Source: Inonotus obliquus
Lineage: Eukaryota; Basidiomycota; Agaricomycetes; Hymenochaetales; Hymenochaetaceae
Assembly (NCBI GenBank): GCA_032164295.1
Contig: JAJHTX010000005.1
Span: 930,001 to 994,000, forward strand
DNA length: 64,000 nt
Direction: 5' to 3'
In this document: positions 2,522-36,745 of the stretch, piece after piece
Layout: every line of letters begins with the position of its first letter
Position numbering within the stretch: position 1 is the first letter of the stretch
Notes under the pieces: generated by a model
The model's database searches: none
The model's input: the letters and a program-made list of their open reading frames with translations, nothing else
Told to the model about the DNA's origin: nothing
Program-made: the position numbers and the translations under genes

Positions 2522-2544
2522 AAGGTTGGGCGTCCCGACCAACG

Positions 2545-6276: not shown

Positions 6277-6317
6277 TGACGAGAGTCCTTGAGAATGTTG
6301 ACCAGTAGTTACAGTGT

Positions 6318-8982: not shown

Positions 8983-8987
8983 TTCGA

Positions 8988-9217: not shown

Positions 9218-11201
9218 TCACCCCCCCTTTAAGGTTGGGCATCTCAACCAACCATTTGTCCTATCTGGCTCTATGTATCTGAAAAGAGGCTTGAACATTG
9301 ATAAGCCTAGACATGCGACGAAAGCTCAGGGAGCACCTGGATGCTTCTTGTAAAAGTTATCAATAGTCTTATTAGGGTTCGAGACGAGGTTTTCACACAG
9401 TTCCCAAGTTGTTTCGTCGTATCCCTTCCACCTGAAGAGAAAATGAAGCCTTTCTTGATGTTCACACGAGTCCAGGATTTTGTTGACTTTGTACTCTTCC
9501 TTACCGTTAATGAGCTCTGGCAGAGGTGGAGACGGTTTCTTTTGTCCTTCGAAAGCCGGTTTGATGTACAGTTTAAGAAATGCCTCATTGAAGACTAGAT
9601 GTACTCCCTTCCACATCTTCGGCAGCTTGAGTTTATACGCTGCTGCTCCAACCTTTTCTACAATGTCAAATGCACCGTACCATTTGTCTGCAAACTTCCT
9701 GGTGAGCCTGACCATTGTGATGTTCCTTTCATTTAGCATGATTTTGTCTCCTGCTTTGTACTCTACAATGCTGGCTGCTTGTTGATCATGTACCTTCTTC
9801 ATTATGTCATTCACTTTCTCCAGGTTTTCCCTTTCTCCAGGTTTTCCTTGACCTGAGAGTGTGTGACTTTGAGCCCTTTAGTGAATTCTTCTGTTGACAA
9901 GTTGCCTGACATCATATGGATCATTCCTGGATCTAGAGGATCGAGGCCTGTGTTGACAAAAAAAGGAGACATTTTTGTCAACGAGTATTCTCGGTTATTG
10001 TACGTGAACTCTGCAAGAGATAGCCATTCTGACCAATCCATCTGTCGATGATTAATGTATATCCTTAGATACAGTTCAAGTTCTTGGTTAACTTGTTCTG
10101 TTTGTCCATCAGTTTGAGAATGATATGTCATCAACAGATTTCCTTCAATATGAAGTAGTTTATACAGTTCCTTCATGAAGTCGGTGTCGAATTGAGGAAC
10201 TCGATCATGAACAATCTTCTTTGGAAGTCCATGCAGCCTGAAAATGTTGTCTTGGTAAAGTCTAGCCATTTCTGGGGCTGTGATCTTTGTTGTCGTAGGT
10301 ATTGCATGTATTTGTTTCAAAAATTTATTGACAACAACACAGATTGCATTGTAACCATTTAACTCGGGAAGTTCACCAATGAGATTGACCGATATTGTCT
10401 GCCATGGACCTTCCAGAACATCATGTGGATGTAGAGTGTATTATTTCAATTGTCTAGACAGTTTGGTTCTCTGGCAAATGTCGTATCCTTTAATGTACTT
10501 GACAACATCTTGGATTAAGCCAGGCCACCAGTACTTCTGACCAATAGATCTCTATGTCTTTGTCTGGCCTGGATGTCTGGCCAATAGAGAGTTATGGTGT
10601 TTCTTCAGGACGTCCTTGATGAATTCCACCTGTATGATGAGTCTACCATCCGCTCTCGACTCTAACTCTTTGCTTGCATCCTTGATCCATTATTCTAATG
10701 TTGTCCTTGATGTTTCTACAATAGCTCTTGTCTTAAACTATTCATCATTCAACAGTTGTAATCCTTGGTTATCCTCCTTGCCTTCATCATAGTCATACCG
10801 ACGAGACGAAGCATCTGCCTTTGTCATTGTTGTTTCTAGCTTATGAACAAATACCATGTCAGATTTTGACAAAAACAATGACCAGCGGGCTTGTCAACAG
10901 TTCAGGTCTTGCAGTTTCTAGAAGTACATTAAGTTTGCATGATCTGTCCAAAGTTTGACGGGACATTTAGCTCCTAGGAGGTAATATCTCTATTCCGTCA
11001 GCACTTAGACGACTGCGAGGAGCTCTTTGTCGTAAATCTGGTAGTTCTGTTCCACTGCTGACAATGTCTATGATCAGTAGGCAATTACCCTCCACACATC
11101 TCCTTGCTTCTGGAGTAACACTCCTCTGGTCGCAAAGTCTGATGCATCCATCTCTACCCAGAAAGGATTATTGTCATTCGGAATTGCTAGGACTGGAGCG
11201 C
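9218..11201 (-). pseudogene. pol: gypsy-2 pol: RNase H, integrase, chromodomain (broken)
   Basis: Minus-strand homology to gypsy-1 pol is clear: a chromodomain with LHFLFRWKGYDETTWE near 9400-9450, an integrase core with FRLHGLPKKIVHDRVPQFDT and YHSQTDGQTEQVNQELELY at 10050-10250, and RNase H fragments up to 11201. A 17-bp tandem duplication at 9813-9846 shifts the frame. Many stops occur between 10320 and 11200, so this is dead. The coding sequence stops abruptly at 11201 inside RNase H and resumes at 15308. Confidence 0.9.
9813..9846. repeat. 17-bp tandem duplication causing frameshift
   Basis: CTTTCTCCAGGTTTTCC occurs twice in direct succession. Because 17 is not a multiple of 3, it separates the integrase frame (9811-10320) from the chromodomain frame (9326-9814). 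Confidence 0.85.
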
Positions 11202-12810
11202 TAAAGGGTAATACTGGAAGCTACGATCGATATGGGCTTAATTCTGCAATTCTACCGCTTCTTCCAATTAACAATACTTCTGTGATGCTACCGCTTCTTA
11301 CTTCTCTTCGGACCACAGTACTTCTGCCGTCCTATCTACGCCTGCGGTTCCAATGAAGTACGAGGCTTCTGCAATTTGACAAGGCTAAGATCGAGTGAGA
11401 ACTGGTCCTGCATGTGTTTAGCCAGACTTCTGTGCCAATACCAAATCACCAATCCCTACGCCCGTCTTCCATCACAATACCGAACCACCAGACTTCGATA
11501 CCGATGATACCAATACCGTACCGTCCACCCATCCTGATACCAATGCTTAATAGTCCACATTTAGTCAATACTACACCCTCGACGGCCCGTACTGAGGGAA
11601 AGGCTCACAAGCTACGATCGGTCTGCCATACGTTGCTGCGAAGAGTTGGATCATTGTCGAAGCTCCAAGTCCAACGGTCTGCCCTTCTGAACTGCCACGT
11701 ATCGATACCGATGATACCGTTGTTGATACCAATGGCCCACTCTGGTACCGAAGTTTGTAATGTGTGCTAGGTCGAGACCGCACCCTTAGAGATCTACGTC
11801 GAGAGGAAGGTTGGGAAATGAATCAGATCTGTGGTACGCTGCTTCAATCTCGGAGGAGACCATCGATCTGACTCGAAGGCGAAGCCAAGCAATGCCCAGT
11901 CGAGTCAGGCAATGCGTACCGATCGATATCGAGAGGCACAAGCAATCTCATCGATGCTCAGGGACGATCCCAGCGTACTGATTGGCACCGAGCGATAGAG
12001 TACCCCAATGCCAAGGTTAGGTTGTACCGACATGTCAACATCGGAGCATGCTGTCCGATCACTCGGTAGATGCCCAGACTGACGCCGCATGGATCATGAT
12101 ACTAGAACAAAGGTAAATCTGGATGACATGCTTCTCCGGAGAAGAAGACAACAGGGCCATTGTCAGGAGCACCCATGCGGTAGCTTGAGACACATCCTTA
12201 CTTTAGCGCTGGTCGACATCGGTACCGCCACCCTACCTCGGTATCACTTGTTGTGAGTTTTCATTGGGTTCTTGTCTCGTCCTGCCCTATTCTTAGCTAC
12301 CCCCTGATTAAACTTCTTATTCATTCATCATCTTATGTTTTCCCTGATTATATTTTTACATTCATTTTGACCTTATGTTCCCCTTCTTGTTTGTAAAAAC
12401 TCCCCATTTGGTATCTTGAATGGCTACGGTATTATGGTATTTATAGCCTGCATGTTCTACCATAGCAAACCAGCTAATCTAAGAGGAACTTCCAGAGTGA
12501 AGATCTGGGTTTTGCTCATCTTGTTCAAGTCCCCGTTCATTCGTCTCGTCTCATAGTCGCCAGTATCGAAACCGGTAGTCATCGATATTGTCTTCGTTGT
12601 CCTCACCCCCTCGTCTCACAACTAGTCCTATCAGAAACTCATCCTCTACTCGTCTTCTCTACTGCTTTGTTCTCACTACTGCGATACCGAACAACGAACA
12701 TCTCAGTATCGACGGATTTGTCTCGGTATTGATCGTCTCCTGATTCTTCGTCTCCCAGGCCCTACTATCTCTCTTGACAACCTGTCTGTGACAGTACGAC
12801 TTAGTACCGC

Positions 12811-15217
12811 TAAATGTGCGAGAACGCGGCCGGTATCAGAAGTACCGGACGAGGGGGGTACAATTTAGATGCGTTGGGAGGGCCGGTACGTGGCGGTACT
12901 AAGTCGTACAGTCACAGACAAGTTGTCAAGAGAGAATAGTAGGGCCTGGCTGGATTGATGAGTACAGGAGGCTATAGGTGACTGCTCAAGAGGCGAGGTA
13001 TCAGGAGACGATCGATACCGAGACGAATCTGTCGATACCGAGTTGTCTGGTGTCCGGTATCACGGTAGAGAGAACGAAGCAGTAGAGAAAGCGAGCTGAG
13101 GAGGTGTTTCTGATGGGACTGGTCGTGAGACGAGAGGCGAGGGCGACGAAGACGAAAACGATGACTACTGGTATCGATACCGGCGACTACGAGACGAGAC
13201 GAACGAACGGGGACTTGAACAAGATGAGCAAAACCCGGACCTTCACTCTGGAAGTTCCTCTCAGATTAGCTGGTTTGCTACAGTAGAACATGCAGGCTAT
13301 AAATACCATAATACCGTAGCCATTCAAGATACCAAATGGGGGTTTATACAAGTCGAATCGTACCGCAATCTGGTACAAGAAAGGGAACATAAAGTCGAAT
13401 AGAATGTAAGATTATAATCAGGGGAAACATAAGATGATGAATGAATAAGAAGTTTTATCAGGGGGTAGCTAAGAATAGGGTGGGACAAGACAAGAACCCA
13501 ATGAAACTCACGACGAGTGATACCGAGGTAGGGCGGCGGTACCGACGTCGACCAGCGCTAAAATAAGGACATGTCTCAAGCTACCGCATGGGCGCTCCTG
13601 GCGATGTCCCTGTCGTAGGAGAAGCACGTCATCCTGATTTACCTTTGTTCCGGTATCATGATCCGTGCGGCGTCAGTCTGGGCGTCTACCGATCGATCGG
13701 ACGGTGTGCTCCGATGTTGACGTGTCGGTACAGCCCAACCTTGGCAATGGGGTACTCTACCGCTCGGTACCAATCAGTACCCTGGGATCGTCCCTGAGCA
13801 TCAACGAGATCGCTCGAGCCCCTCGATATCGATCGGTACGCGTTGCCTGACTCGACTGGGCATTGCTTGGCTTCCCCTCCGAGTCGGATCGATGGCCTCC
13901 TCCGAGATCGAAGCAGCGTACGGCGGACTTGATTCATTTCCCAACCTTCCTCTCGATGTAGATCTCCGAGGGCATGGTCTCGACCTAGCACACGTTACGA
14001 ACTCTGGTACAGGAGCGGACCATCGGTATCAACACCGGTATTCGTCGGTATCGATGCATGGCAGTTCGGAAGGGCATACCGTCGGACTGGGAGCTTCGAC
14101 CATGATCCAACTCTTCGCAGCAACGTATGGCAGACCGATCGTAGCTTTGTGAGCCTTTCCCTCTGGTATGGGCTGTCGAGGGCATAGTACCGACTAGACG
14201 TGGACTATTAAGCATCGGTATCAGGATGGGTGGGCGGTACGGTATCGGTATCATCGGTATCGAAGTCTGGTGGTTCGGTACTGTGATGGAAGACGGGCGT
14301 AGGGATTGGTGATTCGGTACAGTAATTCACCGTTCCTTTGAACACCAATTACTTTTTCATTTGCACGACCTCTCCCCCTCAACTATTTGCACATTTTATT
14401 TCATGTATGAAAATGGCACACTGAGACGTACCTGAGAGAATTTTTTCAATGTCTGGAAAGTACCGGTTAGATTAATACAGAGAAAAGAAAAACGGAGAGA
14501 TTTTGGACCAAAAACCACTCCTTTGAACACCCCGTCGCCTAATCAATTTGTTACCCCTGTCTCGGCAAGTAACACTTTACGTCATCTAATTTTCTTACTT
14601 AACACAAGAAACTATGACTTATGACAATTGTCTGCTACATAGAAATCACAATTCTTGTCCAAATTGCTTCGGAGAATATGGAATGTGCGCATGAGATACT
14701 ATATAATATGAATCATAGCCCAGATCTTCCCAAACTCTGCATGTTATTATATGAGGAGATTTGGACGGAGGAACATGGTTAGAAATTGCTCTGATTCTTG
14801 CAATGTCGATTTTTTTGACATTTAACTACTCAACCAAATTCTACAGAAACTTATATGAGAGTAGGCCACATAAGTTGGAATGTGATGTTATTTTTTCAGG
14901 CGAAAAGATGGAGAATTGCGGGAGAAAATGCCAGGTGTTCAAAGGAGTGGTGGTGTTCAAAGGAACGGTGAATTACTGTATTGGCACAGAAGTCTGGCTA
15001 AACGTATGCAGGACCAGTTCTCAATTGTTCTTAGCCTTGTTGAATCGCAGAAGCCTCGTACTTTGTTGGAACCGCAGGCATAGATAGGACGGCAGAAGTA
15101 CCATGGTCCGAAGAGAAGTAAGAAGCGGTAGCATCACAGAAGTATTGTTAATTGGAAGAAGCGGTAGAATCGCAGAATTAAGCCCATATCGATCGTAGCC
15201 TCCGGTATTACTCTTTA
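12811..15217 (+). repeat. family B LTR-like unit nested in a B unit
   Basis: Starts TAAATGTGCGAG and ends CTCTTTA, with a perfect target duplication CCGC (12807-12810 and 15218-15221). Its own length is 1746 bp after removing MITE-1 (14320-14978 plus one TA). The nesting makes a large inverted repeat centred near 12.88 kb. A TATAAATA word near 13300 is conserved among B copies. Confidence 0.85.
14320..14978. mobile_element. MITE-1, 659-bp non-autonomous Tc1/mariner-type element
   Basis: Terminal inverted repeats of about 27 bp start CAGTAATTCACCGTTCC. The TA target is duplicated (14318-14319 and 14979-14980). The empty site can be read in the sister B unit near 11420-11436. A subterminal ACTCCTTTGAACACC is repeated in inverted form (about 14517 and 14934). 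No transposase frame lies inside. Confidence 0.9.
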
Positions 15218-15307
15218 CCGCCATGTACCGGCCCTCCCAACGCACCTAAATTGTACCCCCCTCGTCTGGTATTTCTGATACCAGCTGCGTTCTCGCACAT
15301 TCAGTGC

Positions 15308-15538
15308 TTGTCAGCCTTCCCTTGATTTCTTCAAAGGCTTCTTGCTCCGTTGAAGTCCATTCCCAGATGATGTCTCCTGTCAGGCAATTTAGGGGTTTAA
15401 CAATTGCACTGTATTCTTTGACGAATTGTTGTAACTAGTTGCCTAGTCCAAGAAATTGTTGTAGCTGTTTCTTGTTCTTGGGAGAGGGCCACTTTGCAAT
15501 GGTGTCAATCTTTTCTGGATCTATGTGCACTTCACTAT
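15308..15538 (-). pseudogene. pol: gypsy-2 pol fragment: RT end to RNase H start
   Basis: The minus strand reads VHIDPEKIDTIAKWPSPKNK, then FLGLGNWLQQFVKEYSA and WEWTSTEQEAFEEIKGRLT, the connection between RT and RNase H. It joins 11201 on one side and 18577 on the other once the insertions are removed. Confidence 0.9.
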
Positions 15539-18500
15539 TAATTGTGCAAGAACACGGCCGATATCAGAAGTACCAGTCGAGAAGGGTACAATTTAGATGC
15601 ATTAGGAGGGCCGGTATGTGGCAGTACTAAGTTGTACTGTCACAGACAAGTCGCCGAGAGAGGTTAGATGGCCTGGCAAGCTAATAGAGTGCAGGAAGGC
15701 TCTAGGTAATCACTCACGAAGGGAAGTAGCAGGCAGTGTTTGATACCGAGATGAATTCATTGATACCAAGTCATCTGGCATCAGTACTGAGACAGTAAGA
15801 TCGAAGGAGGGAAGGGGACGAGAGTGCGAGGAGTCTTGATGAGGTGAGTCGTGAGAGGCAAGTGCTAAGAGAGACAATGTTGATAATGAAAAGAGCTACG
15901 TGCAGCTGAGCTTGGTATCAAGTCTGGTATCTCATTCTATGTTTACTCTATGCTACAGTACAGTTCTATCTACTCACACAGGGAAACTGTCTGTCCTATT
16001 TCTCAAGATACTGAATGCCAAGAGTACTGGTACTGAGCGCCAAGAACTCCAGTGCCAAGAGTGCTGAGAGTACCAAGTGCTGATAAACTTGGTACCGAGA
16101 CATTTTAACGATTCAACATGCTCTCATAACATGGATTAGACATCTCTCTCTGGTATCTATTCCTAATAGTTGGACTATGTGTGCCGGTTCTTTGGGAAGC
16201 TCAGGGTCAGTATCCATTGAGGTTTTCGGGTCTGGTACCATCTGAAACATGTTGGTATCAATCAGCAGGGGCGCAGATCTCTTGTCCTGAGAACTTTTCA
16301 TCCAGAGGTACTCTATATGCTACGTTTTCATTGGTGTCTTGTCCTACCTAACTCTTTCTTGTTTTCCTCCTGATGGCACTGCTATATTCACTTTCCTTGT
16401 TACATTTTTCTGTAAACTTTTATGTGTTTTGATCTTCCTTTTTACTTTCTCCTTTTGGACTTATGAGCTAACTACAGTACAGTAGTATAAATATCTCCTC
16501 CTGTACGAAGTAGCTCTCCAGGTAATCTTAGGAGCTAGCCTCTAGCGTGAGGGCTCAGGTTTTCTCACCCCAACTCAGTCTCGTCTCAGTCCATTCTCAG
16601 CTCTATCTTGAGTTTTGTCCCAGTCCCATCCCAGTTCCGTGTCCAGTAAACCTCAGAAGTTAGCCTTCTATGTAAGAGCTCAGGTTTGCTTCTCGGTACA
16701 GCTCATCCTCTCAGCCATCAGTCTCCCCTATTCTGTTTCTTTCTATACCACCCTGTGCCAGCTGTTTTCTTGCAGTACCGACTTGTATCAACATTTTTCC
16801 CATGGTACCGACATTTTGTTCTCCTACTTTTTTCTAAATATCACCCTTTTGTTTCTGTACTAACCTTTTGTTTTACAATGATTCTTCACATACTAATCCT
16901 GTTCATTCGAGTACTAACCTGTACCAACATTTTTTCCATAGTACTGACCCTCTCTATTCTGGACAAGAACACATTCCTCCTAATGTCTAGATAGTTCAGC
17001 ACTCCTTTCTATTATTCCTTTGACTCCCTTTACATCCTCCTTCTACAGACAACAAGTACTGTGAGTGTACTAGATAAGTACTGCCTCATTTGGCCCTCTC
17101 TCTTTCTTATACCATACACCTCTTGACCGGTATCCCCAGTACCGGCCACGATCCTACACATTTAACAAATACCAGTATTGATACTGGCAACTATGAGATG
17201 AGACAAACAAACTAGGACTTGAACAAGATGAGCAAAATCTGGATCTTCACTCTGGAAGCTCTCTCAGATTAGCTGGTTTGTTACAGTAGAACATGCAGGC
17301 TATAAATACCATAATACTGTAGCTATTTAAGATACCAAATGAGGAATTTTACAAGTCAAATTGTACCACAATCTGGTACAAGAAGAAAAACATAAGGTCA
17401 AAATAAATGTAAAAATATAATCAGGGGGAACATAAGATGACAAATGAATAAGAAGTTTTATCAGGGGGAAGCTAAGAATAGAGTAGAACATGACAAGAAT
17501 CTAATGAAAACTCACGACGAGTGATACTGATGTAGGGTGGTGGTACTGATGTTGACCAGCGCTAAAATAAGGACATGTTTCAGACTATAGCAAGGGTGCT
17601 TCTGATGGTGGCTCTGTCATCTTCTTCTCTAGAGAAACACATCATCAAGATTTACCTTTGTTCTGGTATCTTGATCCGTGCGGTGTCAGTCTGGGCATCT
17701 ACCAAGCAATCGGGCAGTGTGCACCAATGTTGACATGTCGATATATTCAAACCTTGGCAGCGGAGTACTCTATTGCTCAGTACCAATCAGTATGCTGGGA
17801 TTGTCCCTAGGCATCGATAAGGTCGCTCATGCTCCTCGGTATCTATTGGTATGTGTTGCCTGGTTTGACTGGGCATTGCTTGGCCTCACTTCTGAGTTGA
17901 ATTAGTGGTTCCCTCCAAGACTGAAGCAGCATAAGGCAGACCTGATTTATTTCCCAACCTTCCTCTCGGTATGGATCATCGAGGACATGGTATCAACCTA
18001 GCACATGTTACAAGATGCCAGTACCAGAGTAGGCGATTGATATCAGTATCGGTATTGTCAGTATCAAAGTGTGGTGGTTTGGTAAGGTAGACTGACAAAC
18101 TTGGAGCTTCAAAACTTTTGATGATTCAACTTCTCACAGCAACGTAGGGTAGACCAATTGCTGTTCATGACCTTCCTCTCGGTATGAATTGTCGAGAGCA
18201 TAGTATTGACTGATTGTGGACCATAAAATGTCGGTACCAGGATGGGTGGTCAGTACAGTATTGGTATCATCGGTATTGAAGCTTGGTGGTTCGATACTGG
18301 GATAGAAAATGGGCATAAGAATTGGTGGTTCGGTACTGGTGCAGAAGTCTGGCTTAAAGCCTACAGGACCAATTCCTAATTGATCTTAGCCTGGTTGAGT
18401 CGCAGAAGTTTTATATTCCATCAGAACTGTAGGCATAGATAGGATGACAGAAGTACCGTAGTCCGAAGAGAAGTAAGAAGTGGTAGGATCGCCAAAGTAT

Positions 18501-18572
18501 TGTTAATTGGAAGAAGTGGTAGAATTGCAAAATTAAGCCTATATCGATTGTAGCCTCTGGTATTTCCCTTTA
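15539..18572 (+). repeat. family B LTR-like unit interrupted by an A unit
   Basis: Starts TAATTGTGCAAGAAC and ends CCCTTTA. The target duplication CTAT/CCGT (15535-15538, 18573-18576) derives from CCGT, as the rejoined gypsy-2 codons (LGNGEVH) show. Own length is about 1752 bp after removing the A unit at 15887-17164. Confidence 0.85.
15887..17164 (-). repeat. family A solo LTR nested in a B unit
   Basis: Starts TGAAAAGAGC and ends CACATTTA, 1278 bp. The target duplication ATAA/ACAA lies where other B copies have ACGA. It is similar throughout to the 1309-bp LTRs at 20807-31005, with many transitions. Confidence 0.85.
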
Positions 18573-18576
18573 CCGT

Positions 18577-18810
18577 TACCAAGAATGTAACTGAGGAACT
18601 TTACTGTTGACACTTCGAACTCGCACTTCACCAGTTTCAAGTACAGCTTGTGCTCTCTCAGCACACTGAATACCTGCTTAATCAGCTGTTGGTGCTCATC
18701 GAGGTTGTCCAAAAAGATGAGGATGTCATCTAGGTAAATAACAACTTTCCCTTGTCTAATCAGGTCTCTGAAAATGTTGTTAACAAATGTTTGGAAAGTT
18801 GCAGGTGCGT
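18577..18810 (-). pseudogene. pol: gypsy-2 pol fragment: RT catalytic region
   Basis: The minus strand reads ATFQTFVNNIFRDLIRQGK, then the RT catalytic VVIYLDDILIF, then DEHQQLIKQVFSVLREHKLY and KCEFEV. Both catalytic aspartates survive here although the element as a whole is dead. Confidence 0.92.
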
Positions 18811-20383
18811 TAAAGGAAAATACTAGAGGCTACAATTAATATGAGCTTAATTCTGCAATTCTACTGCTTCTTCCAATTAACAATACTTTGGTGATTCTAC
18901 CGCTTCTTACTTCTCTTCAGACTATGGTACTTCTGCTGTCCTATCTATGCTTATAGTTCTGACAGAATACAAGGCTTCTGCGACTCAACCAGGCTAAGAT
19001 CAATTGGGAATTAGTTCTGCAGGCTTTAATCCAGACTTCTATGCCAGTACTGAACCACCAATTCTTACGCCTGTCTTCTGTCCCAGTATCAAACCACCAA
19101 GCTTCAATACTGATGATACTAATACCATACCAACCACCCATCCTAGTACCGACATTTTATGGTCCACAATCAGTCAATACTACGCTCTCGAAGATCCGTA
19201 CAGTTAATACTACACTCTCAATGATCCATACCAAGAGAAAGGTTGAAAAATGAATCAGGTCTGCCTTACGCTGCTTTGGTCTTGGAGAGAACCACTGATC
19301 TGACTTGGAGGCGAGGCTAAGCAATGCCCAGTTGAGCCAGGCAATACATACTGATAGATACTAAGGGGCACGAGCGATCTTATTGATGTCCAGGGATGAT
19401 CCCAGCAAACTGATTGGTACTGAGCAATAGAGTACTCTGCTGTCAAGGTTTGATTATACCAACATGTCAACATTGGTGTACACTGTCTGATCACTCAGTA
19501 GCCGCCCAGACTGACACCGCATGAATCAAGATACTGGAACAAAGGTAAATCTTGGTGACACATTCTCCAAAGAAGAAGACGACAGAGCCACCATCAGAAG
19601 CACCCTTGCTATAGTCTGAAACACATCCTTATTTTAGTGCTGGTCAATGTTGGTACTGCCACCCTACTTCAGTATCACTTGTCATAAGTTTTCATTGGAT
19701 TCTTGTCTTGTTCTACTCTATTCTTAGCTTCCCCCTGATAAAACTTCTTATTCATTCATCATCTTATGTTCCCCCTGATTATATTTTTACATTTATTTTG
19801 ACCTTATGTTTTTCTTCTTGTACCAGATTGTGGTACAATTTGACTTGTAAAATTCCTCATTTGGTATCTTGAATAGCTACAGTATTATGGTATTTATAGC
19901 CTGCATGTTCTACTGTAACAAACCAGCTAATCTGAGAGGAGCTTCCAGAGTAAAGATCCAGATTTTGCTCATCTTGTTTAAGTTCTAGTTTATTTGTCTT
20001 GTCTTGTAGTCACCAGTATCAATACCAGTATTCGTCATCATTGTGTCTCTTAGCTCTTGCCTTTCGCCTCACAACTCACCCCATCAAGACTCCTTGCTAT
20101 CTCGTCCCTCCTCTGCTTTGATTGTGCTGCCTCAGTACTGATGCCAGACAACTTGGTATTGACAGATTTGTATTGGTATTGAACGCTGCCTGCTACTTTC
20201 CTTCATGAGTGGTCACCTAGAGCCTCTCTGTACCCTATTATCTCACCAGGACATACTACATCTCTCAATGACTTGTCTGTGACAGTACAACTTAGTATTG
20301 CCACCTACTAGCCCTCTCAACGCACCTAAATTGTACCCCTCTTCACCGGTACTTCTGATACTGGCTGTGTTCTTGCACATTCA
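18811..20383 (-). repeat. family B LTR-like unit
   Basis: Starts TAAAGGAAAAT and ends TTGCACATTCA. The target duplication is GCGT/GCAT (18807-18810, 20384-20387). At 1573 bp it is shorter than its sisters, by an internal deletion near 19200. It splits the Asn-Ala-Pro-Ala RT motif of gypsy-2. Confidence 0.83.
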
Positions 20384-20387
20384 GCAT

Positions 20388-20445
20388 TGCATAAACTAAA
20401 GAACATGACAGTAGGTTCGAAAAGCCCCTCATTTGTTCTAAACAC
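20388..20445 (-). pseudogene. pol: gypsy-2 pol fragment: short RT piece
   Basis: These 58 bases encode RTNEGLFEPTVMFFSLC on the minus strand, the RT segment just before the NAPATFQ motif. The piece is bounded by a B unit on the left and an A unit on the right. Confidence 0.85.
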
Positions 20446-23518: not shown

Positions 23519-23536
23519 CTCAATTCCGATCGATAC

Positions 23537-26560: not shown

Positions 26561-26934
26561 TCTCCCGGGCACTTTAAATAGTGACTGTCCTCAGTCATCC
26601 TCCATAGCCAAGGTGCATCGGTAACGTGAGGCGGCACAAGGAGAGGTAAGCCAAAGAGTCCTTCCTCCAACCCAATCCATCATCAAGTCGACTCGGCGTC
26701 TCCGGTACCAGTGATTAGTAAGCTTCGGTACCAGGAGTGGTAGTGGAATGCAACTGCAGTGTCATCGAATAGGAACCAATACCGAAATTCGCACAAAGGA
26801 CAGAAGAACGTGAATAAGTGAGACAGTGGAAGAATGTATAAGATAATTTGAGAATGGGATGGGGGTATAGGTACGGAAGGTAAAACAATCAAATACCGAC
26901 CGTGCAAACAGTTTTCAGAAGTAGAAGTTCAAAA

Positions 26935-27963
26935 TTATCCATAATCAGAAAGGAGAGGGTGGAATAGAAGAAAGAATAGCTGGGAAAGGGGTAGCAACCA
27001 GTCCACAGCCATACCGAGGTATGTTCCACCATTGATACAATAGCCCCGTCCGGTACCGAGCTTATGTAAGCAGTACCGAGGCGGTACTGAGAACAGGAGA
27101 GAGTCTTGCGCAGTATTCTGGTACCGGTAGCTGCTGCGAGCCGTCGCTAGTTGCTTGCCCGGGTTGGCAGGGAATGTCTGGCTGAGTTGTCCTAAAATGA
27201 GCAAGCCATAGTCGTCCTTGAACCATAGTCTGTCACGTGTACCAAATACCGACAACTCCTTGGTGCTTGTAGACTTTACGGTCACCACATTTCCCAACTC
27301 GAGAGCCCTTACTGAAGTACCGGAAATGCTTCGATGGGTCGTAGAATGAGTTCCAAGAGCTGCTGCCACCACTGAACGAACTACCGAGCCAATACCAGGG
27401 GGTTGGTACCGATGCCGAGAGAAAAGTACCGGTACCGGTACCGGAAATCGATCGAATAAGCCAAAACATGCAACTCCTCCAATACCAATAGAAGCCCTAC
27501 TAGTTCCAGTAGATGTCGTACGGCTGACCTGAGACTCCTGGGCTGAATTCTGCCTGACACCATAGTCCAAATGGCTGGCGTCTAACGACTTGATGTGGCT
27601 GTGCTTGGTACCGAGAGGCTGGGGAATCCCGGGTGACGAGACTCGCATGGGGGAGCAACCAATAAACGCCTTTCGAAATTCATATACTGGATCCAAAACC
27701 TGAGGATGAGCACCGACTAGACAAAAGATTGACATGGGGGCCTTCCTAGCTATCCCAACGACTGGGAGAATGGGTACCGAAGATTCTGGAGCATGTACTG
27801 GGGCCTCGACGATTGCATTCTGCACTGGAACGATTGGTACCGGGGACTTGACAATTTCATCTGGCACCAGAATAACTGGTACCGGAGCCACCAATGACAC
27901 TAACGAGTCGTCAGCTGGATCCATATCCTGACTGATACCAGGGTCCGGTACGTGGCTGTGCAC
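26935..27963 (-). CDS. unknown 342-residue frame downstream of gag, unit 2
   Basis: The copy of 22490-23518 at +4445. One residue differs (FDRFPVP against FDRFLVP). Function unknown. Confidence 0.4.
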   Translation of the reverse strand: MHSHVPDPGISQDMDPADDSLVSLVAPVPVILVPDEIVKSPVPIVPVQNAIVEAPVHAPESSVPILPVVGIARKAPMSIFCLVGAHPQVLDPVYEFRKAFIGCSPMRVSSPGIPQPLGTKHSHIKSLDASHLDYGVRQNSAQESQVSRTTSTGTSRASIGIGGVACFGLFDRFPVPVPVLFSRHRYQPPGIGSVVRSVVAAALGTHSTTHRSISGTSVRALELGNVVTVKSTSTKELSVFGTRDRLWFKDDYGLLILGQLSQTFPANPGKQLATARSSYRYQNTAQDSLLFSVPPRYCLHKLGTGRGYCINGGTYLGMAVDWLLPLSQLFFLLFHPLLSDYG

Positions 27964-27981
27964 CTCAATTCCGATCGATAC

Positions 27982-29427
27982 TCAATGCACGTCCACCAGA
28001 TCTATGCCTCCTAGACACTGCACCACTTCCTGACCTAACACGTCATCTCCTGCAACCGAATCCGCTGATCCTTCCTCAACTAACAACCTGGAACTGAGTA
28101 CCGGGGGATCTTCTTCCTTCTCTGACAGCTCTCCTGCTGCCTCAGTACCAACTGCATATACGCTCCCGGGACCTCCACACTCAACTGAAACCAACTCGCT
28201 CATCTGCCTTCTAAGCTCCTGCGATAACGCCAACAACTCGCGTTGAGATACCGTAAGCCCAGATCCAAGAGGCTGATCTACTGGGGCCAGTACCGGAGAC
28301 TTCCAGTCAGCTACCGAGGGCTCGTATGCATCTTCTTTGAGTTTCGGGAGTGGGTCTGACATTGCTAAGACTCTGCTGGGAGACGTGTCCTCCATGTAGT
28401 AGTACTCTGGTACTGATGATCTCTCGGCGCTCCGGTACTCCGGTACTTGCAATCTCTCGGCGCTCCGGTACTCCGGTACTAACGGTCTCTCTGCACTCCG
28501 GTACTTCCTCCTGCGTGCTTCCTCTGCCTTCCTTTGAGCCTCCTCAAGCAGAATCTCCAACCTAACGACCTCCTGATCATCTTCTACCTCCTCTGCAATT
28601 CTCTGCCTTGCAACTGGGGACTCTCGGCATTGCTGGATCGGTACCGGGACTGATACCGGAGGTGAATGGGCCACAACTACGTTTACCGAAGGCAACTCCA
28701 ATGGTTCCAGTAACAACTGCTGCTCCTGCTCCAGTTCCTCTACCTGTAACTGAAGGACCTGCAACGTCTTCCAGAGTGTACCAAGCTCCGGCTCCTCCTC
28801 GACTGGCTGCGACTCAGCATTACATAATCCGGTACGAGGTGATTCATCGAAAAAGTCGGTACTGAGAACATAATCAGCATGCTTATGGATCTGCTCCACT
28901 GTATATGTCATTCCAGGCTGGGGATCGGCTTCTTTTGTCTCGAGACGTAAACGGATGCGATCCCGAAGGCTACCGGTGAATACTGAGAAGTAGTACCGGG
29001 CTGCTTCCTCTACCGAGAGGGTACCGAGACTCTTCAGATAGCTCCAACGCATGAGATATTCGTTCCGGTACTGGGCCAGATTGAGTCGTGTCTTGATCCC
29101 TTTGCATCTCCAGAACTCTACAAGCTGAATAACGTCTTCTTGAGTATACTGGGCTCCTTCAGACAAAATCAGGTAAAACGACTTGATGGCTGCTTTGGCC
29201 TTCGACCAATCGGTAGCGGTATCTGATGCATCTGGTGAGGTCTTCCAAAGCTCGGCTACGGTGCGAGATGCATAGTATCCAGCATACCAAATCGTCTGGG
29301 CTGGGTCTAGGTTGTATTCGGCAGCTAGGTACTCTATGTCTTCAAGGTACCGGGGCAGTTCTCGTGGTTCGGTACCATCGAACGAAGGAGTGTCTTCGGT
29401 TCCGCGTCTGGGAGGACGTCCTACCAT
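27982..29427 (-). CDS. gag: Gag-like protein (481 residues), unit 2
   Basis: The protein is identical to that of 23537-24982: capsid-like N-terminal domain, Leu/Gln-rich helix, three YRSAER-type repeats. Complete identity over 1446 bp of coding length, set against strongly decayed neighbouring solo LTRs, shows that the duplication is recent. Confidence 0.8.
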   Translation of the reverse strand: MVGRPPRRGTEDTPSFDGTEPRELPRYLEDIEYLAAEYNLDPAQTIWYAGYYASRTVAELWKTSPDASDTATDWSKAKAAIKSFYLILSEGAQYTQEDVIQLVEFWRCKGIKTRLNLAQYRNEYLMRWSYLKSLGTLSVEEAARYYFSVFTGSLRDRIRLRLETKEADPQPGMTYTVEQIHKHADYVLSTDFFDESPRTGLCNAESQPVEEEPELGTLWKTLQVLQLQVEELEQEQQLLLEPLELPSVNVVVAHSPPVSVPVPIQQCRESPVARQRIAEEVEDDQEVVRLEILLEEAQRKAEEARRRKYRSAERPLVPEYRSAERLQVPEYRSAERSSVPEYYYMEDTSPSRVLAMSDPLPKLKEDAYEPSVADWKSPVLAPVDQPLGSGLTVSQRELLALSQELRRQMSELVSVECGGPGSVYAVGTEAAGELSEKEEDPPVLSSRLLVEEGSADSVAGDDVLGQEVVQCLGGIDLVDVH

Positions 29428-29696
29428 CTTGCTCGAGTGGGGTTATACTTCTAAATTGATAACGGAGTGAAATACGAACTGAAAAGGGAAAACAACTAAT
29501 GGCTGGGGGATTGTGAAGCGGCAATAAGAACAAATGCTACCGTCCAGTACCGAGGTACCGGTCTGCCGAAACTTTTACAGAGATGAACTGGACAAAACAA
29601 ACTGTCGGTATTGAAAGGGAATGAAAGGGGAGTAGTCAGAATAATCAATTAGACAACAAGACACCTTGAAAACCCTCCCTCGCGGTGGGCTCCAGA

Positions 29697-31005
29697 TAAA
29701 TGTGCAAGATCGCGTCCAGTACCGGAGGTACTGAGACGAGGGGTGTATGGTTTTAAGTGGGGGAGGGCTAATATGTGCCGGTACTTAACCAGTACGGTCA
29801 CGGTACTTGTTGTCTATGAAAAGGGGGAGTGAATGGATGGGCCAGAAGCAAAGAGTATATGATTCTGGTATGAAAAGGACAGTTTTGAACGTGGGAAAAA
29901 CTTCAGTATAGGTCGGTATGAGAGAGAACGTAGCAAAACAAGAGTCTAATACCGTGGGAAAAACCTCGGTACAGGTCGGTACAGAAAGAAAGGGGTCGGT
30001 ACGTGAAGGTATGTTGTCAAACAAGAAGATCAGTACAGAAACAAAAGGGTGACGTGCAGAATGCAAAGGATAACAAAATGTCGGTATCGTGGGAAAAACG
30101 TTGGTATAGGTCGGTACTGCAGGAAACAGCTAGCACGGGATGGTATAGCAAGGGACTGAATGAGGTTGACTGGTGGCTGAAGGTGTCGACTGGACTGGGA
30201 AGCAAACCTGAGCCCTCACACGGGAGGCTAACTCCGAAGGTTCACTTGAGACGGAACTGGGATGGGATTGGGACGAAGCTTGAGATGAGACTGAGACGGA
30301 ACTGAGAAGGGGGTGAGGAAAACCGAGCCCTCACGTTAGAGGCTAGCTCCTAAGATTACCTCGAGAGCTACTACGTACAGGAGGAGATATTTATACTACT
30401 GTACCGTAGTTAGCTCATAAATCCAAAAGGAGAAAGTAGAAAGAAAGATCAAAACAAAGAAAAGTCTGAAGAGAATTGTAACAAGGAAAGTGAACATTGC
30501 AGCGCCATCAGGGGGACAACAAGAAAGGGTTAGGGAGGACAAGATACCAATGAAAACGTAGCATATAGTACCCCTGGATGAAAAGTCCTCAGGACAAGAG
30601 ATCTGCGCTCCTGCTGATTGATACCGACACGTTCCTGGTGGTACCGGACCTGAAAACCTTAATGGATACTGACCCTGAGCTTTCCCAAAGAACCAGCATG
30701 CATAGTCCAACCATCAGGAATGAATACCGTAGAGGGAGACGTCTGATCCATGTCATGAGAGCATGTCGAATAGTCAATTTGTCTCGGTACCGGGTTTCTC
30801 GGCACTCGGTACTCTCGGTATTCTCAGTACCGGGTTTCTTGGCGCTCGGTACCAGTACTCTCGGCGTTCGGTACTTCGAGAAATGGGACTGACGGTTTCT
30901 CTGGGTGTGCTGGTGGATACTGAAAGGACTGTACCGTAGCATGGGGTAAGCGTAGAATGGGATACCAGGCTTGATACCGAGCTCAGCTGCACGTAGTTCT
31001 CTTCA
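29697..31005 (-). repeat. family A LTR, copy 3 (5' LTR of unit 2)
   Basis: It differs from copies 1 and 2 at a handful of positions near 30815-30950. It ends CTCTTCA at 31005, the outer border of the array. Confidence 0.9.
30388..30395 (-). promoter_or_regulatory. TATA box of family A LTR (unit 2 promoter)
   Basis: TATAAATA on the minus strand in the 5' LTR of the rightmost unit; it could drive transcription through the whole array. Confidence 0.5.
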
Positions 31006-33731
31006 CTGCTCAAGAGACAAAGAATCAGGAGTCAATCGATACTGAGTTGAACCCGTCGATACCGAGTCTTTTGTTGTTCAGTATTGTGGTAGTGAGAACA
31101 AAGCAGTAGAGAAGATGAGTAGAGAATGAGTTTCTGATAGGACTAGTTGTGAGACGAGGAGGGCGAGGATAACGAAGACAATATCGACGACTACCGGTTT
31201 CAATACCAACGACTACGAGACGAGACGAACAAATGGGGACTTGGACGAGATGAGCAAAACCCAGATCTTCACTCTGGAAGTTCCTCTCAGATTAGCTGGT
31301 TTGCTATGGTAGAACATGCAGGCTATAAATACCATAATACCACAGCCATTCAAGATACCAAAAGGGGAGTTTTTACAAGTCGAATTGTACTGCAATCTGG
31401 TACAAGAAGGGGAACATAAGGTCGAATTGAATGTAAAAATATAATCAGGGGAAACATAAGATGGTGAATAAATAAGAAGTTTTATCAGGGGGTAGCTAAG
31501 AATAGGGTGGGACGAGACAAGAACCCAATGAAAACTCACGACAAGTGATACCGAGGTAGGGTGGCGGTACCGATGTCGACCAGCGCTAAAGTAAGGACAT
31601 GTCTCAAGCTACTGCATGGGCGCTCCTGACGATGGCCCTGTCGTCTTCTTCTCCAGAGAGGTGCATCATCTAGATTTACCTTTGTTCCAGTATCATAATC
31701 CGTGTGGCGTCAGTCTGGGCATCTACTGAGAGATCGGATGGCATGCTCCGATGTTGACATGTTGGTACAACCTAACCTTGGCATTGGAGTACTGTATCGC
31801 TTGGTACCAATCAGTATGCTGGGATTGTCCCTGGGCATCAATGAGATCGCTCGAGCCCCTCGATATAGATCGATACGCGTTGCCTGACTCGACTGGGCAT
31901 TGCTTGGCTTCACCTCCGAGTCGGATCAATGGTCTCCTCCAAGATCGAAGCAGCATACCGTGGACCTGATTCATTTCCCAACCTTCCTCTCGACGTAGAT
32001 CACCGAGGGCACGGTCTCGACCTAGTACATGTCACGAACTTTGGTACTGGAGTGGACCATCGGTATCAACACCAGTATCGTCGGTATCGATGCATGGCAG
32101 TTCAGAAGGGCATACCGTCAGACTTGGAGCTTTGACAATGATCCAACTCTTCGCAGCAACGTATGGCAGACCGATCGTAGCTTATGAGCCTTTCTCTCGG
32201 TATGGACTGTCGAGAGCGTAGTATTAACTAATGGTGGACTATTAAACGTTAGTATCAGGATGGGTGGACGGTACAGTATCGGTATCATCGGTATCGAAGC
32301 CAGGTGGTTTGGTACTGTGATGGAAGACAGGCATAAGAATGTGTGATTCAGTATTGGCGCAGAAGTCTGGCTAAAGCATGCAGTACCAGTTCTCAATTGA
32401 TCTTAGCCTTGTTGAATCGCAGAAGCCTTATACTTTGTCCGAACCGCAGGCGTAGATAGGATGGCAGAAGTACCGTAGTCCAAAGAGAAGTAAGAAGTCA
32501 TAGAATCGCAGAAGTATTGTCAATTGGAAGAAGTGGTAGAATCGCAAAATTAAGCCCATATCGATCATAGCCTCCGGTATTACCCTTTACCAGTACTGAG
32601 AGTGCCGAGAGTGCCAAGTGCTGAGAAACTCGGTACTGAGATAATCTGACAATTTGACATGCTCTCATAACATAGATCGGACATCTCCCTCTCTGGTATT
32701 CATTCCTGATGGTTGGACTATGCATGCCGGTTCTTTGGAGAAGCTCAGGGTCAGTATCCATTAAGGTTTTCAGGTCTGGTACCACCAGAAATGCTTCGGT
32801 ATCAATTAGCAGAGGCTCAAATCTCTTGTTCTGAGAACTTTTCATCTAGAGGTACTATATGCTACGTTTTCATTGGTATCTTGTCCTACCTAACCCTTTC
32901 TTGTTGTCCCCCTGATGGCTCTACTGTATTCATTCTTCTTATGACATTTTTCTTCAGACTTTTCTTTGTTTTGATCTTCCCTTTTACTTTCTCCTTTTGG
33001 ACTTTTGAGCTAACTACAGTACAGTAGTATAAGTATCTCCTCCTGTACGTAGTAGCTCTCCAGATAATCTTAGGAGCTAGCCTCTAGCGTGAGGGCTCGG
33101 GTTTCCTCACCCTCTTCTCAGTTCTGTCTCAGTCTCATCTCGAGTTCTATCCTGGTCCCATCCCAGTTCTGTCTCAAGTGAACCTTCAGAGTTAGCCTCC
33201 TGTGCGAGAGCTCAGGTTTACTTCCCAGCACAGTCGACACCTCTCAGCCACCAGTCTACCTCATTCAGTCCCTTGCTATACCACCCCGTACTAGCTGTTT
33301 TCTTGCAGTACCGACCTGTACCGATGTTTTTCCCATGGTACCGACCTTTTGTTATCCTTCGTATTTTGCACATTATTCTTTAGTTTCTGTACTGATCTTC
33401 TTGTTTGACAACATACCTCCACATACCGACCCCTTTGTTTCTGTACCGACCTGTACCAAGGTTTTTCCCATGGTATTAGACTTTTGTTTTGATACATTCT
33501 CCCTTGTACTGACCTGTACCAAAGTTTTTCCCACATTCTGACCTGTCCTCTTTTCATACAAGTCTCATACCCTTCCCTTCCGGCCAGTCCATTAACTCCC
33601 CCTTTTCATAGAGAACAAGTACTGTGACCATACTGGTTAAGTACCGGCACGTATTAGCCCTTCTCCACTTAAAACCATACACTCCTTGTCTCGGTATTTT
33701 GGTACCGGATGCAATCTTGCACATTTAATGC

Positions 33732-35348
33732 TGCCTTCTATTTGTCGCCTTCCCTGACATGGATGTTGTAATATCTCTATCTGACGTCAAGCTTTGTGAT
33801 AAACTGTGCTATTTTTACTTTGTCAACAAGTTCGCCAATAAGTGGTAATAGGTATTTGTTCTTTACTATACCCTCATTAAGCTTCCTATAGTCTTGGATA
33901 GCTTGTAGCAATCTGTCAGCCTTCTTGATGAAGAAGAAGGGGGATGCTATTGGCGATAATGATTCGGTTTTTGTTGATAAAGGTATATAGTTTCTTATGC
34001 TCCTTCATGTTCAGTAGATATACCTTGCAATCAGAGGGCTTAAAGTCCGGTTCAAGATTGATGATGTGGTCCCATACTCTGTGCTCAGGTAACCTCTCAA
34101 AGTTTTTCTTCACTGAAGACGTTGGCATGATCATCCAGGTATGTCGGCCATGATGACTGTCTGTGCTGAGGGATAACATGTCGAGCTTTCTGGATGTTGT
34201 GCTGTTTACATGATTTTGGACAGCTATCAAAGTCAATGCATCCACGCTTCCAATCAATTGATGGATTATGTTTACTCAGCCACAAATATCCTAGGAACAG
34301 ATTTGACATTGATATGGTAAGAATGGGTAGACGTATTCATTCTTCATGGTTCTCGATTTAAAGATTAAGTTTGACATAGTGCATCATCTTGCCTCCTTCG
34401 ATTATTGTCCCATCAGCATTCATGACATTCATTGGGTGCAGAAGTTCTAACATTGGGATCTGATATTGCTTGACAAAACCTGCATTGACATATGAGTCTG
34501 TGCATCCTGAGTCGATTAACACATATGCATCCAATGTTCTTCCATTATCCAGGATCAGGTTGACATATAAGTCCAGCTCATGTCAGACTTTCATCTTATT
34601 TTCCTCTTCCATATTTCTAGCAACTGAGCCTTTGACGAGTTTGTCAAGGAGAAACCCAAAGTCATCATTGTCGAATTCATTTTCTTTAAACTGTTCGCTT
34701 TGGGTTTGATTTTTAAATTCATCAATCTTATTTACAGACGTCTCATTTAATAGTGTTACATCTGATGAATTATAAATATTTGGAGACCATAGCAAATCAT
34801 CTAAGAAATTTGAGCCAGAGACATTGATGTCATCTACTGGCTTTCTGAAAAATTCTCATTGTCAGGATTACTTTCATTGACGACTTCTACTTCTTCCACC
34901 CAACGCGCTGCTGCTGACGCTAAGTCTGCTTCCGCAAATAACTTGTTGCAGAGCAGTTTCTTCATCTTATCAGAGAGTTCTGTGATGATTGTGCAGACAG
35001 CTTGCAGAGTTTTTGGCATGGGGCACTTTCTAGCAATGTGGCCAAGCTTGCCACAATTGAAGCATCTTCTTTCATGTCAAAGATGTTGAAGGGTCACCTG
35101 CATCAGCTCGCCCTGTCCACCGAACATGATGTCTGTCAAGTCCTTCTTGTCATCATGCGACAGGTCGAATAGTGCCAGTTGTTGTGGCTCCAGCTGGAAG
35201 GTTTGTCAATGTGGAGGTGGTTGTGTTGGTGTGTTCTGTCACCTTAGCTGATGAACTTCTTGCTCCTTTGTGTTAAAGGAAATGGCATATGCCTTTATCT
35301 GGTTGTATGTCATTGGGGTAGTAGGGAGATGGATTATAACTGTCGCGA
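33732..35348 (-). pseudogene. gag-pol: gypsy-2 gag C-terminus, protease and RT start
   Basis: The minus strand holds a CCHC zinc knuckle CFNCGKLGHIARKC (about 35025-35070) and the gag end FSESQ-stop at 34834. In the -1 frame FFRKPVDDINVSG opens pol. The protease motif is LIDSGCTDSYV (about 34495-34530). RT begins with DHIINLEPDFKPSDCKVY and PLPLI-like remnants. Several stops and frameshifts, for example at 34257 and 34583, make it non-functional. The left end joins the RT piece at 20388-20445; the right end joins gag at 36746. Confidence 0.88.
34846..34856 (-). promoter_or_regulatory. candidate -1 gag/pol frameshift site, gypsy-2
   Basis: AATTTTTCAGA on the minus strand, seven codons before the gag stop TAG. 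A one-base back-slip changes FSESQ-stop into FFRKPVDD and enters pol, as in gypsy-1. Confidence 0.5.
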
Positions 35349-36741
35349 TGAAGAGAACTACATGCGGCTGAGCTCAGTATCAAGCCCAGTATCCCATTCT
35401 ACGCTTACCTTATGCTATAGTTCAGTCCCATCTATACCTTTTAGAAGCCACCAGCACACTCAAGGAAACTGTTTGTTCTATTTCTTAAGATACCAAATGC
35501 TGAGAGTACTGGTACCAAGCGCCAAGAAACCCGGTACTGAGAGTTCCAAGTGCCGAGAAACTTGGTACCAAGACAATTTGATAATTTGATATATTCTCAT
35601 GATATAGATTAGATGTCTCTCTCTCTGGTATTCACTTCTGATGGTTGGACCATGCATGCTGGTTCTTTGAAGAAGCTCAGGTTCAGTATTCAATAAGGTT
35701 TTCGGGTCTGGTACCACCTGAAATGTGTTGGTATCAATCGATGGAGGTGCAGATCTCTTGTCATGAGGACTTTTTATCTAGGGGTACTATGTGCTACATT
35801 TTCATTGGTATCTTGTCCTACCTAACCCTTTCTTGTTGTCCCCCTGATGGCTCTGCTGTATTCATTCTTCTTATGACATTTTTCTTCAGCCTTTTCTATA
35901 TTTCAATTTCCCTTTCTACTTTCTCCTTTTAGAATTATGAGCTAACTACAGAACAGTAGTATGAATATCTCCTCCTGTATGTAGTAGCTCTCCAGGTAAT
36001 CTTAGGAGCTAGCCTCTAGTGTAAGAGCTCAGGTTTCCTCACCCCCTCTTAGTCTCATCTCAGTCTCGTCTCAGCTTCGTCTTGAGTTTTGTCCCAGTCC
36101 TGTCTCAGTCCTGTCTCAAGTGAACCTCAGGAGTTAGCCTCCCATGCGAGAGCTCAGGTTTACTTTCCAGCACAGTCGACACCTCTCAGCCACCAGTCTA
36201 TCTCACTCAGTTCCTTGCTATACCACCCCATGCTAGCTGTTTTCTTGCAGTACCAACCTGTACCAATGTTTTTCCTACGGTACTGACCTATTGTTATCCT
36301 ACATGTTCTGCATATCATCCTCTTGTTTCTGTACTGATCTTCTTGTTTGACAACATATCTCTATGTACCAGCCCCTTTGTTTCTGTACCAACCTGTACCA
36401 AGGTTTTTCCCATGGTACTGACCTTTTGTTATCCTTTGTATTCTGCACATCACCCTTTTGTTTCTGTACTGACCTTTGTGCTTGACTACATTTCTCCACG
36501 TACCGACCTCTTTGTTTCTGTACTGACCTGTACTGAGGTTTTTTCCACATTCTAACCTACTCTTTTCATACCAGAGTCTTATACCCTTCATTTCTGGCCC
36601 ATCTATTAACTCCCCCTTTTCATAGACAACAAGTACCGTAACCATCCGGGTTAAGTACCAGCACGTATTAGCCCTCCCCCACTTAAAACCATACACCTCT
36701 TGTCTTGGTATTTTGGTACTGAACACAATCTCGCACATTTA
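35349..36741 (-). repeat. family A solo LTR in gypsy-2 gag
   Basis: Starts TGAAGAGAAC and ends TCGCACATTTA, with a perfect target duplication GCGA (35345-35348, 36742-36745). It is 1393 bp, longer than the array LTRs because the region of GTTTTTCCCA and GGTACTGACC repeats (36260-36545) is expanded. Removing it joins LCKEV with ATVIIHLPTTP in gag. Confidence 0.9.
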
Positions 36742-36745
36742 GCGA

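What the first reader, a model, noticed from the sequence alone, without database searches (positions are those of the whole stretch)
11198..36745. LTR families A and B insert at CpG: every 4-bp target duplication is NCGN
Nine independent insertions have these left/right duplications: GCGC/GTGC (11202), CCGC/CCGC (12811), CTAT/CCGT (15539), ATAA/ACAA (15887), GCGT/GCAT (18811), ACAC/ATGC (20446), CCAG/CCAG (20632), CCGC/CTGC (20807), GCGA/GCGA (35349). After allowing C-to-T decay, and checking against rejoined gypsy-2 codons or sister repeats, all nine fit N-C-G-N. Chance alone gives about 1 in 16 for a CG centre per site, less in CpG-poor DNA. An integrase complex that selects CpG, perhaps methylated CpG in silent DNA, would explain both the specificity and the nesting. 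I know of no described element with this rule.
Basis: partly seen in the sequence, partly recalled or inferred. Interest (0 to 1): 0.88.

Follow-up and report, generated by a model that had tools for sequence, protein, structure and literature searches.

The report
Fungal retroelements that insert at CpG
Two families of gag-only jumping elements in a mushroom-type fungus almost always land with one CG pair exactly in the middle of their 4-base target, a much stricter landing rule than is usual for such elements.

Summary
All nine window insertions exist as described. At 8 of 9 sites at least one relative without the insert carries NCGN.

I tested it on ends found by element sequence alone. Of 125 distinct outer ends outside the window, 110 have CG at target positions 2-3 and 12 have TG/CA. 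Other registers give 0-16 of 141. Of 42 usable paired ends, 32 have identical 4-bp flanks, all NCGN. Genome-wide, 142 of 180 TAAA-type matches, inner junctions included, have the CG. A chromodomain gypsy of the same genome makes 5-bp duplications, with CG in 1 of 19.

The elements are LTRs and full copies of gag-only LTR retrotransposons. I found no copy with pol, so I infer an integrase in trans, not identified. The rule resembles the 4-bp intasome motif V-YR-B hardened to V-CG-B. CG is fixed between the cuts, which a chromatin tether alone would not explain.

Methylation as the cue is untested. Precedents: Ginger1 (CCGG/CCGT) and ZAM (CGCGCg). New variant of a known kind.

The parts
11198..15307 (-). 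Family A LTR 11202-15303 with target duplication GCGC (11198-11201) / GTGC (15304-15307), inserted in a gypsy (G1-like) pol region
   Evidence: boundaries; empty site GCGC in 21 of 23 relatives; G1-like host
12807..15221 (+). Family A LTR 12811-15217, duplication CCGC/CCGC, nested in the previous one
   Evidence: relatives CCGG 44, CTGC 23, CCGC 10 of 87
15535..18576 (+). Family A LTR 15539-18572, duplication CTAT/CCGT
   Evidence: relatives CCAT 21, CTGT 1, CCGT 1 of 23
15883..17168 (-). Family B LTR 15887-17164, duplication ATAA/ACAA
   Evidence: relatives ATGA 9, ACGA 7, ATAA 1 of 17
18807..20387 (-). Family A LTR 18811-20383, duplication GCGT/GCAT
   Evidence: relatives GCAT 11, GCGT 11, ACAT 1 of 23
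20442..33731 (-). Family B LTR 20446-33727 (split by nested insertions), duplication ACAC/ATGC
   Evidence: relatives AAGC 9, AGGC 9, ACGC 4, ATGC 1 of 23
20628..32593 (+). Family A LTR 20632-32589 (split by the B tandem), duplication CCAG/CCAG
   Evidence: relatives CCGG 65, CCAG 3, CTGG 2 of 71
20803..31009 (+). Family B full element as a tandem: LTR 20807-22115, internal 22116-25251, LTR 25252-26560, internal 26561-29696, LTR 29697-31005; duplication CCGC/CTGC; coding strand is minus
   Evidence: relatives CCGC 7, CTGC 3 of 16
22490..24997 (-). gag-like reading frame of B, two in-frame pieces of 486 and 348 aa divided by one stop; some other copies have it open over 835 aa
26935..29442 (-). 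second copy of the gag-like frame in the tandem
25233..25249 (-). primer binding site TGGAGCCCACCGCGAGG next to the LTR end; second copy 29678-29694
   Evidence: positions converted by hand
35345..36745 (-). Family B LTR 35349-36741, duplication GCGA/GCGA
   Evidence: no relative without the insert found

Best explanation
Families A and B are LTRs (mostly solo, judging by counts) and full copies of two related gag-only, non-autonomous LTR retrotransposons. Their cDNA is integrated by an integrase supplied in trans by an unidentified autonomous element. That integrase cuts target DNA with a 4-bp stagger and accepts essentially only CG as the central dinucleotide, giving NCGN duplications. Shown here: gag-only frames, exact 4-bp duplications, CG in register 2-3, pre-existing CG in relatives without the insert, a weak symmetric V..B bias at the outer positions, and absence of the rule in one other gypsy family of the same genome. 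Inferred: that the specificity sits in the integrase-target contact and bending step (a hardened form of the V-YR-B motif of 4-bp retroviral intasomes), and that the enzyme comes from a gypsy element.
For: Hold-out ends: 110 of 125 CG. Register: 117 of 141 at positions 2-3 against 0-16 of 141 at the other offsets up to 20. Pairs: 44 found, 2 spurious pairings set aside by hand (L049/1272, L074/1379); of 42, 32 identical and all NCGN, 5 differ only by decay of the CG on one side, 5 otherwise; no pair agrees over 5 bp. None of these identical pairs is TG or CA, so TG/CA ends are better read as later decay than as targets. Relatives without the insert: 16 of 43 joined sites matched, 12 of the 16 with at least one NCGN relative, plus 8 of 9 window sites. 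Genome-wide counts: CGNTAAATGTGCGAGAW 142 (reversed-pattern control 1) of 180 AAATGTGCGAGAW; CGNTGAATGTGC 184 (control 13). Outer bases: V at position 1 in 74 of 85 sites and B at position 4 in 73 of 85 (p 8e-5), as for retroviruses with 4-bp duplications, where T and A are disfavoured at those places and the centre is YR (PMC4422553, passages). Gag-only: 26 of 28 LTR-PBS junctions lie beside a gag match (compared by hand) and no frame among the 47 gag matches exceeds 901 aa.
Against: No integrase with these ends was found. The best gag relative with pol (frames up to 1934 aa with DUF4100, and up to 1274 aa with an integrase zinc domain about 7 kb away) shows no such primer binding site. Among the 100 of 184 CGNTGAATGTGC places listed, only one, C1:3771796, lies within 5 kb of a DUF4100 match (compared by hand), so its ends do not look shared; its own duplications could not be read. 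Two of 125 ends (CGGT, TTTA) break the rule outright and one is TA. Five of 42 pairs are not clean duplications; four of these still have CG on both sides, L059 is CCGG/TTTA. In 4 of 16 matched sites no relative reads CG, and at L074 and L018 most relatives read CA (TCAA 43 of 64; ACAG 39 of 67). Window gypsy-1, another family, has one 5-bp duplication TTCGA that also holds a CG.
Confidence: 0.78

Rival explanations
1. The integration complex reads methylated CpG (through the integrase or a methyl-CpG-binding partner), so that silent methylated repeats are the target.
For: CpG decay is marked in these repeats: C-to-T/G-to-A at CpG 0.056 per site against 0.024 elsewhere, with transversions about 8 times rarer at CpG, over 486 copy pairs, which suggests methylated CpG. 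Many insertions lie in other repeats. CpG methylation of repeats is high in another agaricomycete, Marasmius oreades (PMC9674265, passages).
Against: No methylation data for this genome. A tether alone would enrich CpG around the site but not fix it between the two cut positions, which is what is seen. For 27 of 43 joined sites no relative was found among the fetched loci, so they may be single-copy DNA, though only 1% of the genome was compared.
Confidence: 0.13
2. A general preference for flexible YR steps (CG, TG, CA, TA) at the centre of the duplication, with CG only the commonest.
For: 4-bp intasomes prefer central YR (PMC4422553, passages); 139 of 141 ends have CG, TG, CA or TA.
Against: All 32 identical pairs are CG, while TG and CA are each commoner than CG in the loci counted, so a YR rule would give many non-CG identical pairs. 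In the five decay pairs one side still has CG.
Confidence: 0.05
3. The CG is part of the element or of a wrongly placed boundary.
For: Boundaries of elements with TA..TA ends are easy to misplace.
Against: Relatives without the insert carry the site once; outer bases differ between copies but agree between the two sides of one copy.
Confidence: 0.01
4. Insertions fall at random and only those at CpG survive or are recognised.
For: None direct.
Against: Copies were chosen by their own end sequence, not by flank; G1 gypsy insertions in the same genome show CG in 1 of 19; no reason is known to me why a 1-bp shift of an LTR would decide survival.
Confidence: 0.03

Closest known systems
Ginger1 DNA transposons (PMC2836005: passages, some from the abstract, and the Discussion section)
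   Same: 4-bp duplication with CG core (CCGG 75%, CCGT/ACGG 24%), made by a gypsy-type integrase
   Different: Terminal inverted repeats and own transposase; outer bases strongly fixed. Here long direct LTRs, gag only, and CCGG+CCGT+ACGG make up 36 of 117 CG ends
ZAM, Drosophila LTR retroelement (PMC2527525: passages, some from the abstract)
   Same: LTR element with near-strict CpG-containing target, attributed to its integrase; 4-bp duplication (3 insertions) in the table of PMC3276498 (passage)
   Different: Target CGCGCg; here only the central CG is fixed. ZAM has its own integrase
Drosophila Gypsy clades with TATA or ATAT target motifs (PMC3276498: passages and section 12)
   Same: 4-bp duplication, palindromic core characteristic of the clade
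   Different: AT-rich core instead of CG
4-bp retroviral intasomes such as prototype foamy virus (PMC4422553: passages)
   Same: V-YR-B motif over the duplication
   Different: described there as weak specificity; near-absolute CG here
TR-GAG non-autonomous LTR retrotransposons of plants (seen only in a search listing; structure recalled)
   Same: LTRs, primer binding site, gag without pol
   Different: fungal host, B LTRs of about 1.1-1.4 kb, target rule

Membership tests
LTR retrotransposon | direct long terminal repeats flanking an internal region | tested here: met
   three 1309-bp repeats at 99% around two 3136-bp internal regions
LTR retrotransposon | primer binding site next to the 5' LTR | tested here: met
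   TGGAGCCCACCGCGAGG; 26 of 32 places have 0-1 mismatch and lie beside gag matches by hand comparison; the matching tRNA was not looked for
LTR retrotransposon | polypurine tract before the 3' LTR | not tested
   only the last bases (CCCGGGAGA on the coding strand) were seen
LTR retrotransposon | gag | tested here: met
   35% identity over 49% to P0001, which carries DUF4100 and aspartic protease matches; no Pfam match of its own
autonomous gypsy (Ty3) element | RT, RNase H and integrase in the element | tested here: not met
   no Pfam match in the internal frames of the window copy; 26 of 28 LTR-PBS junctions lie beside gag frames, none over 901 aa
TR-GAG type non-autonomous element | LTRs, PBS, PPT and gag, no pol | tested here: inconclusive
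   all but the PPT seen; definition recalled, papers seen only as a listing
Ginger1 | terminal inverted repeats and an encoded DDE transposase | tested here: not met
   repeats in direct orientation, no transposase match
Ginger1 | CCGG or CCGT/ACGG duplication | tested here: not met
   36 of 117 CG ends
ZAM-like target rule | CGCGCg target | tested here: not met
   outer bases vary over 15 of the 16 possible NCGN words
4-bp intasome V-YR-B motif | T disfavoured at first and A at last position, YR centre | tested here: met
   T first in 11 of 85 and A last in 12 of 85 CG sites, p 8e-5

The most novel reading that the evidence does not exclude
The integration complex reads 5-methylcytosine in a symmetric CpG at the very centre of the cut site, so that an LTR retroelement uses the host's silencing mark as its landing code and piles up in DNA that is already silent.
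Probability: 0.13. Interest if true: 0.88.

Novelty: new variant of a known kind. Interest (0 to 1): 0.62.

Why it matters
Target preferences of LTR elements are usually weak palindromes. A rule close to absolute on one dinucleotide, in hundreds of natural copies by genome counts, isolates the central step of the target as the deciding contact and can be tested directly with purified integrase. Because CpG is also the dinucleotide methylated in repeats of such fungi, it raises a testable question: does an element read the silencing mark to choose where to land? The rule also gives annotators a sharp check on insertion boundaries, since the CG of each duplication decays separately on the two sides.

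Tried and rejected
CG as part of the element: rejected by relatives without the insert. Longer duplication: no pair agrees over 5 bp. General property of LTR elements here: rejected for gypsy G1; the other gypsy families were not read. A pol-bearing copy with the same LTR end and primer site: not found. The DUF4100 gypsy as partner: left open, since its ends could not be read. Decay counts on a mixed alignment of A and B (0.116 at CpG against 0.101 elsewhere, little difference) were set aside because family differences swamp them; (pairwise, copies at least 93% alike) replaces them. Naming the host: nearest named G1 integrase relatives are from Sanghuangporus at 63-67%, which I recall as Hymenochaetales; the species is not identified. 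Rows dropped before the count of 141: 26 of 167 distinct ends: 9 inner LTR-internal junctions and 17 below the LTR-similarity cut, two of which (L053 at 38, GCGG; L028 at 21, ACGG) may be real ends cut by the locus edge. A search of the 347-aa gag piece against PDB sequences gave nothing.
Full report
What was checked. The window is G000:C5:930001-994000 of a 36.07-Mb genome in 30 contigs. By nearest named relatives of a gypsy integrase (Sanghuangporus, 63-67%) it is an agaricomycete fungus, probably Hymenochaetales (order recalled); the species is not known to me.

Hold-out test. I searched the whole genome for the U5-side end of the elements without any condition on the flank and took the loci given (30, 15 and 30). 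Together with the 20 integrase loci, the 8-kb stretch and the window, a script listed ends like T(A/G)AATGTGCGAGA..GTAGTTCTCTTCA or ..GGTATTACCCTTTA with 2-3 mismatches allowed: 209 hits, 167 distinct. After 26 were dropped for stated reasons, 141 remained. CG stands at target positions 2-3 in 117, TG or CA in 19, TA in 3, something else in 2. At the other offsets up to 20 bases out, CG is found in 0 to 16 of 141. Leaving out the window's 16 ends, the count is 110 CG, 12 TG/CA, 1 TA, 2 other of 125.

Duplication. Both ends of one LTR were found in 44 pairings, of which two were spurious (an earlier U5 end paired over a neighbour). Of 42, 32 have identical 4-bp flanks and all 32 are NCGN; 5 are NCGN on one side and one CpG-decay step away on the other; 5 differ otherwise (GCGA/GCGC, ACGT/GCGT, TCGG/CCGG, CCGA/CCGT, CCGG/TTTA). 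No pair agrees over five bases. All pairs of this call are of B-type right ends; A-type pairs come from the window only. The identical pairs matter most: if TG or CA were real targets, identical TG or CA pairs should occur, and none does. The one known (CCAG/CCAG at 20632) lies in a repeat whose relatives without the insert are CCGG in 65 of 71.

The CG belongs to the target. Joining the flanks and looking for relatives without the insert gave matches for 16 of 43 sites (one of the 43 a spurious pairing), 12 of the 16 with at least one NCGN relative, and for 8 of 9 window sites. At 11202/15304, 21 of 23 gypsy relatives read GCGC once. At L074 and L018 most relatives read CA in place of CG.

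Genome-wide counts. CGNTAAATGTGCGAGAW occurs 142 times (reversed-pattern control 1) against 180 for AAATGTGCGAGAW. The remainder includes inner LTR-internal junctions (one search lists 16 exact ones of this type, two of them in the window without the full end motif) and at least one chance match (L005). CGNTGAATGTGC occurs 184 times (control 13), so TGAA-type ends obey the rule as well; how many TGAA-type ends lack the CG was not counted genome-wide.

Control. A frequent intact gypsy of the genome (here G1; 1214-aa frame with integrase zinc domain; relatives carry a chromodomain) ends TGTTACGACG...GCGTAACA. Its duplications are 5 bp (AAAGG/AAAGG and CCCTA/CCCTA). The first five flank bases at 19 further 3' ends hold a CG in 1 of 19 and none at positions 2-3. 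Window gypsy-1 (LTRs 1943-2509 and 8417-8983) has TTCGA on both sides, a single case that happens to hold CG.

What the elements are. The B tandem at 20807-31005 shows the anatomy: 1309-bp LTRs, a primer binding site TGGAGCCCACCGCGAGG, and a 3136-bp internal region with one gag-like frame on the minus strand. Genome-wide the gag gives 47 matches, several in frames of 800-901 aa, and falls in two groups 53-56% alike. Locus L099 shows that a copy of the second group has a family A type LTR end (by eye). 28 places match the LTR-PBS junction, 26 of them beside a gag match (compared by hand). The primer site alone is found with 0-1 mismatch at 26 places, also beside gag matches, and with 2 mismatches at 6 others (control 7). 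None of the gag frames runs on into pol. The elements therefore look non-autonomous, with an integrase acting in trans. A gypsy with a DUF4100 gag (seven frames of 1934 aa) and, at five DUF4100 loci by hand comparison, an integrase zinc domain about 7 kb away (frames up to 1274 aa) is the nearest gag relative with pol.

Mechanism. A chromatin tether can explain why insertions crowd in repeats, but not why the CG sits exactly between the staggered cuts. That points to the strand-transfer complex. Retroviruses with 4-bp duplications prefer a flexible YR centre and disfavour T at the first and A at the last position (PMC4422553, passages). Here the same outer bias is seen (T first 11 of 85, A last 12 of 85, p 8e-5), and the third base outside shows a depletion of G (17 of 141, p 1.6e-5 before correction for 16 positions). 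I read the rule as that motif with the centre narrowed from YR to CG. This step is inference: no integrase was identified or tested.

Methylation. Close copies differ at CpG by C-to-T/G-to-A 2.4 times as often as elsewhere, while transversions are about 8 times rarer, and the CG of the duplications decays in the same way. This suggests that these CpGs are methylated after insertion. It does not show that they were methylated before, which is what the methyl-reading idea needs.

Comparison with known elements. Ginger1 and ZAM show that gypsy-type integrases can be strict about CpG. The differences are in the membership table. My searches of the open literature for an LTR element with an NCGN rule found none in their listings, but most subscription papers and Repbase notes are not held. 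I therefore rate it a new variant of a known kind.

Noticed in passing
window 20807-31005: A family B element is present as a head-to-tail tandem, LTR-internal-LTR-internal-LTR, units 4445 bp apart and 99% alike.
   Followed up: partly
window 14320-14978: A 659-bp insert with inverted ends CAGTAATTCACCGTTCCTTTGAACACC and TA on both sides inside an A LTR, like a small Tc1/mariner-type element (recognised by eye).
   Followed up: no
window 1943-8983: A gypsy with 567-bp LTRs (96.6% alike), a chromodomain match and a 5-bp duplication TTCGA; that duplication also holds a CG.
   Followed up: partly
window 42682-47311 and 59381-64000: A 4.6-kb inverted pair 99.3% alike, and a second inverted pair 52145-54075 / 55642-57569 at 99.5%, with different centres.
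   Followed up: no
L099 and the gag matches at C2:1097243, C5:2002464, C12:1876117: A second gag-only group with equal scores in three copies (824-aa open frames), so probably young; the one end read (L099) is of family A type.
   Followed up: partly
genome G000, e.g. C1:3690453 and C1:3697505: A gypsy with a 1934-aa DUF4100 frame (seven copies) and an integrase frame of up to 1274 aa about 7 kb away; candidate source of the trans-acting integrase.
   Followed up: partly
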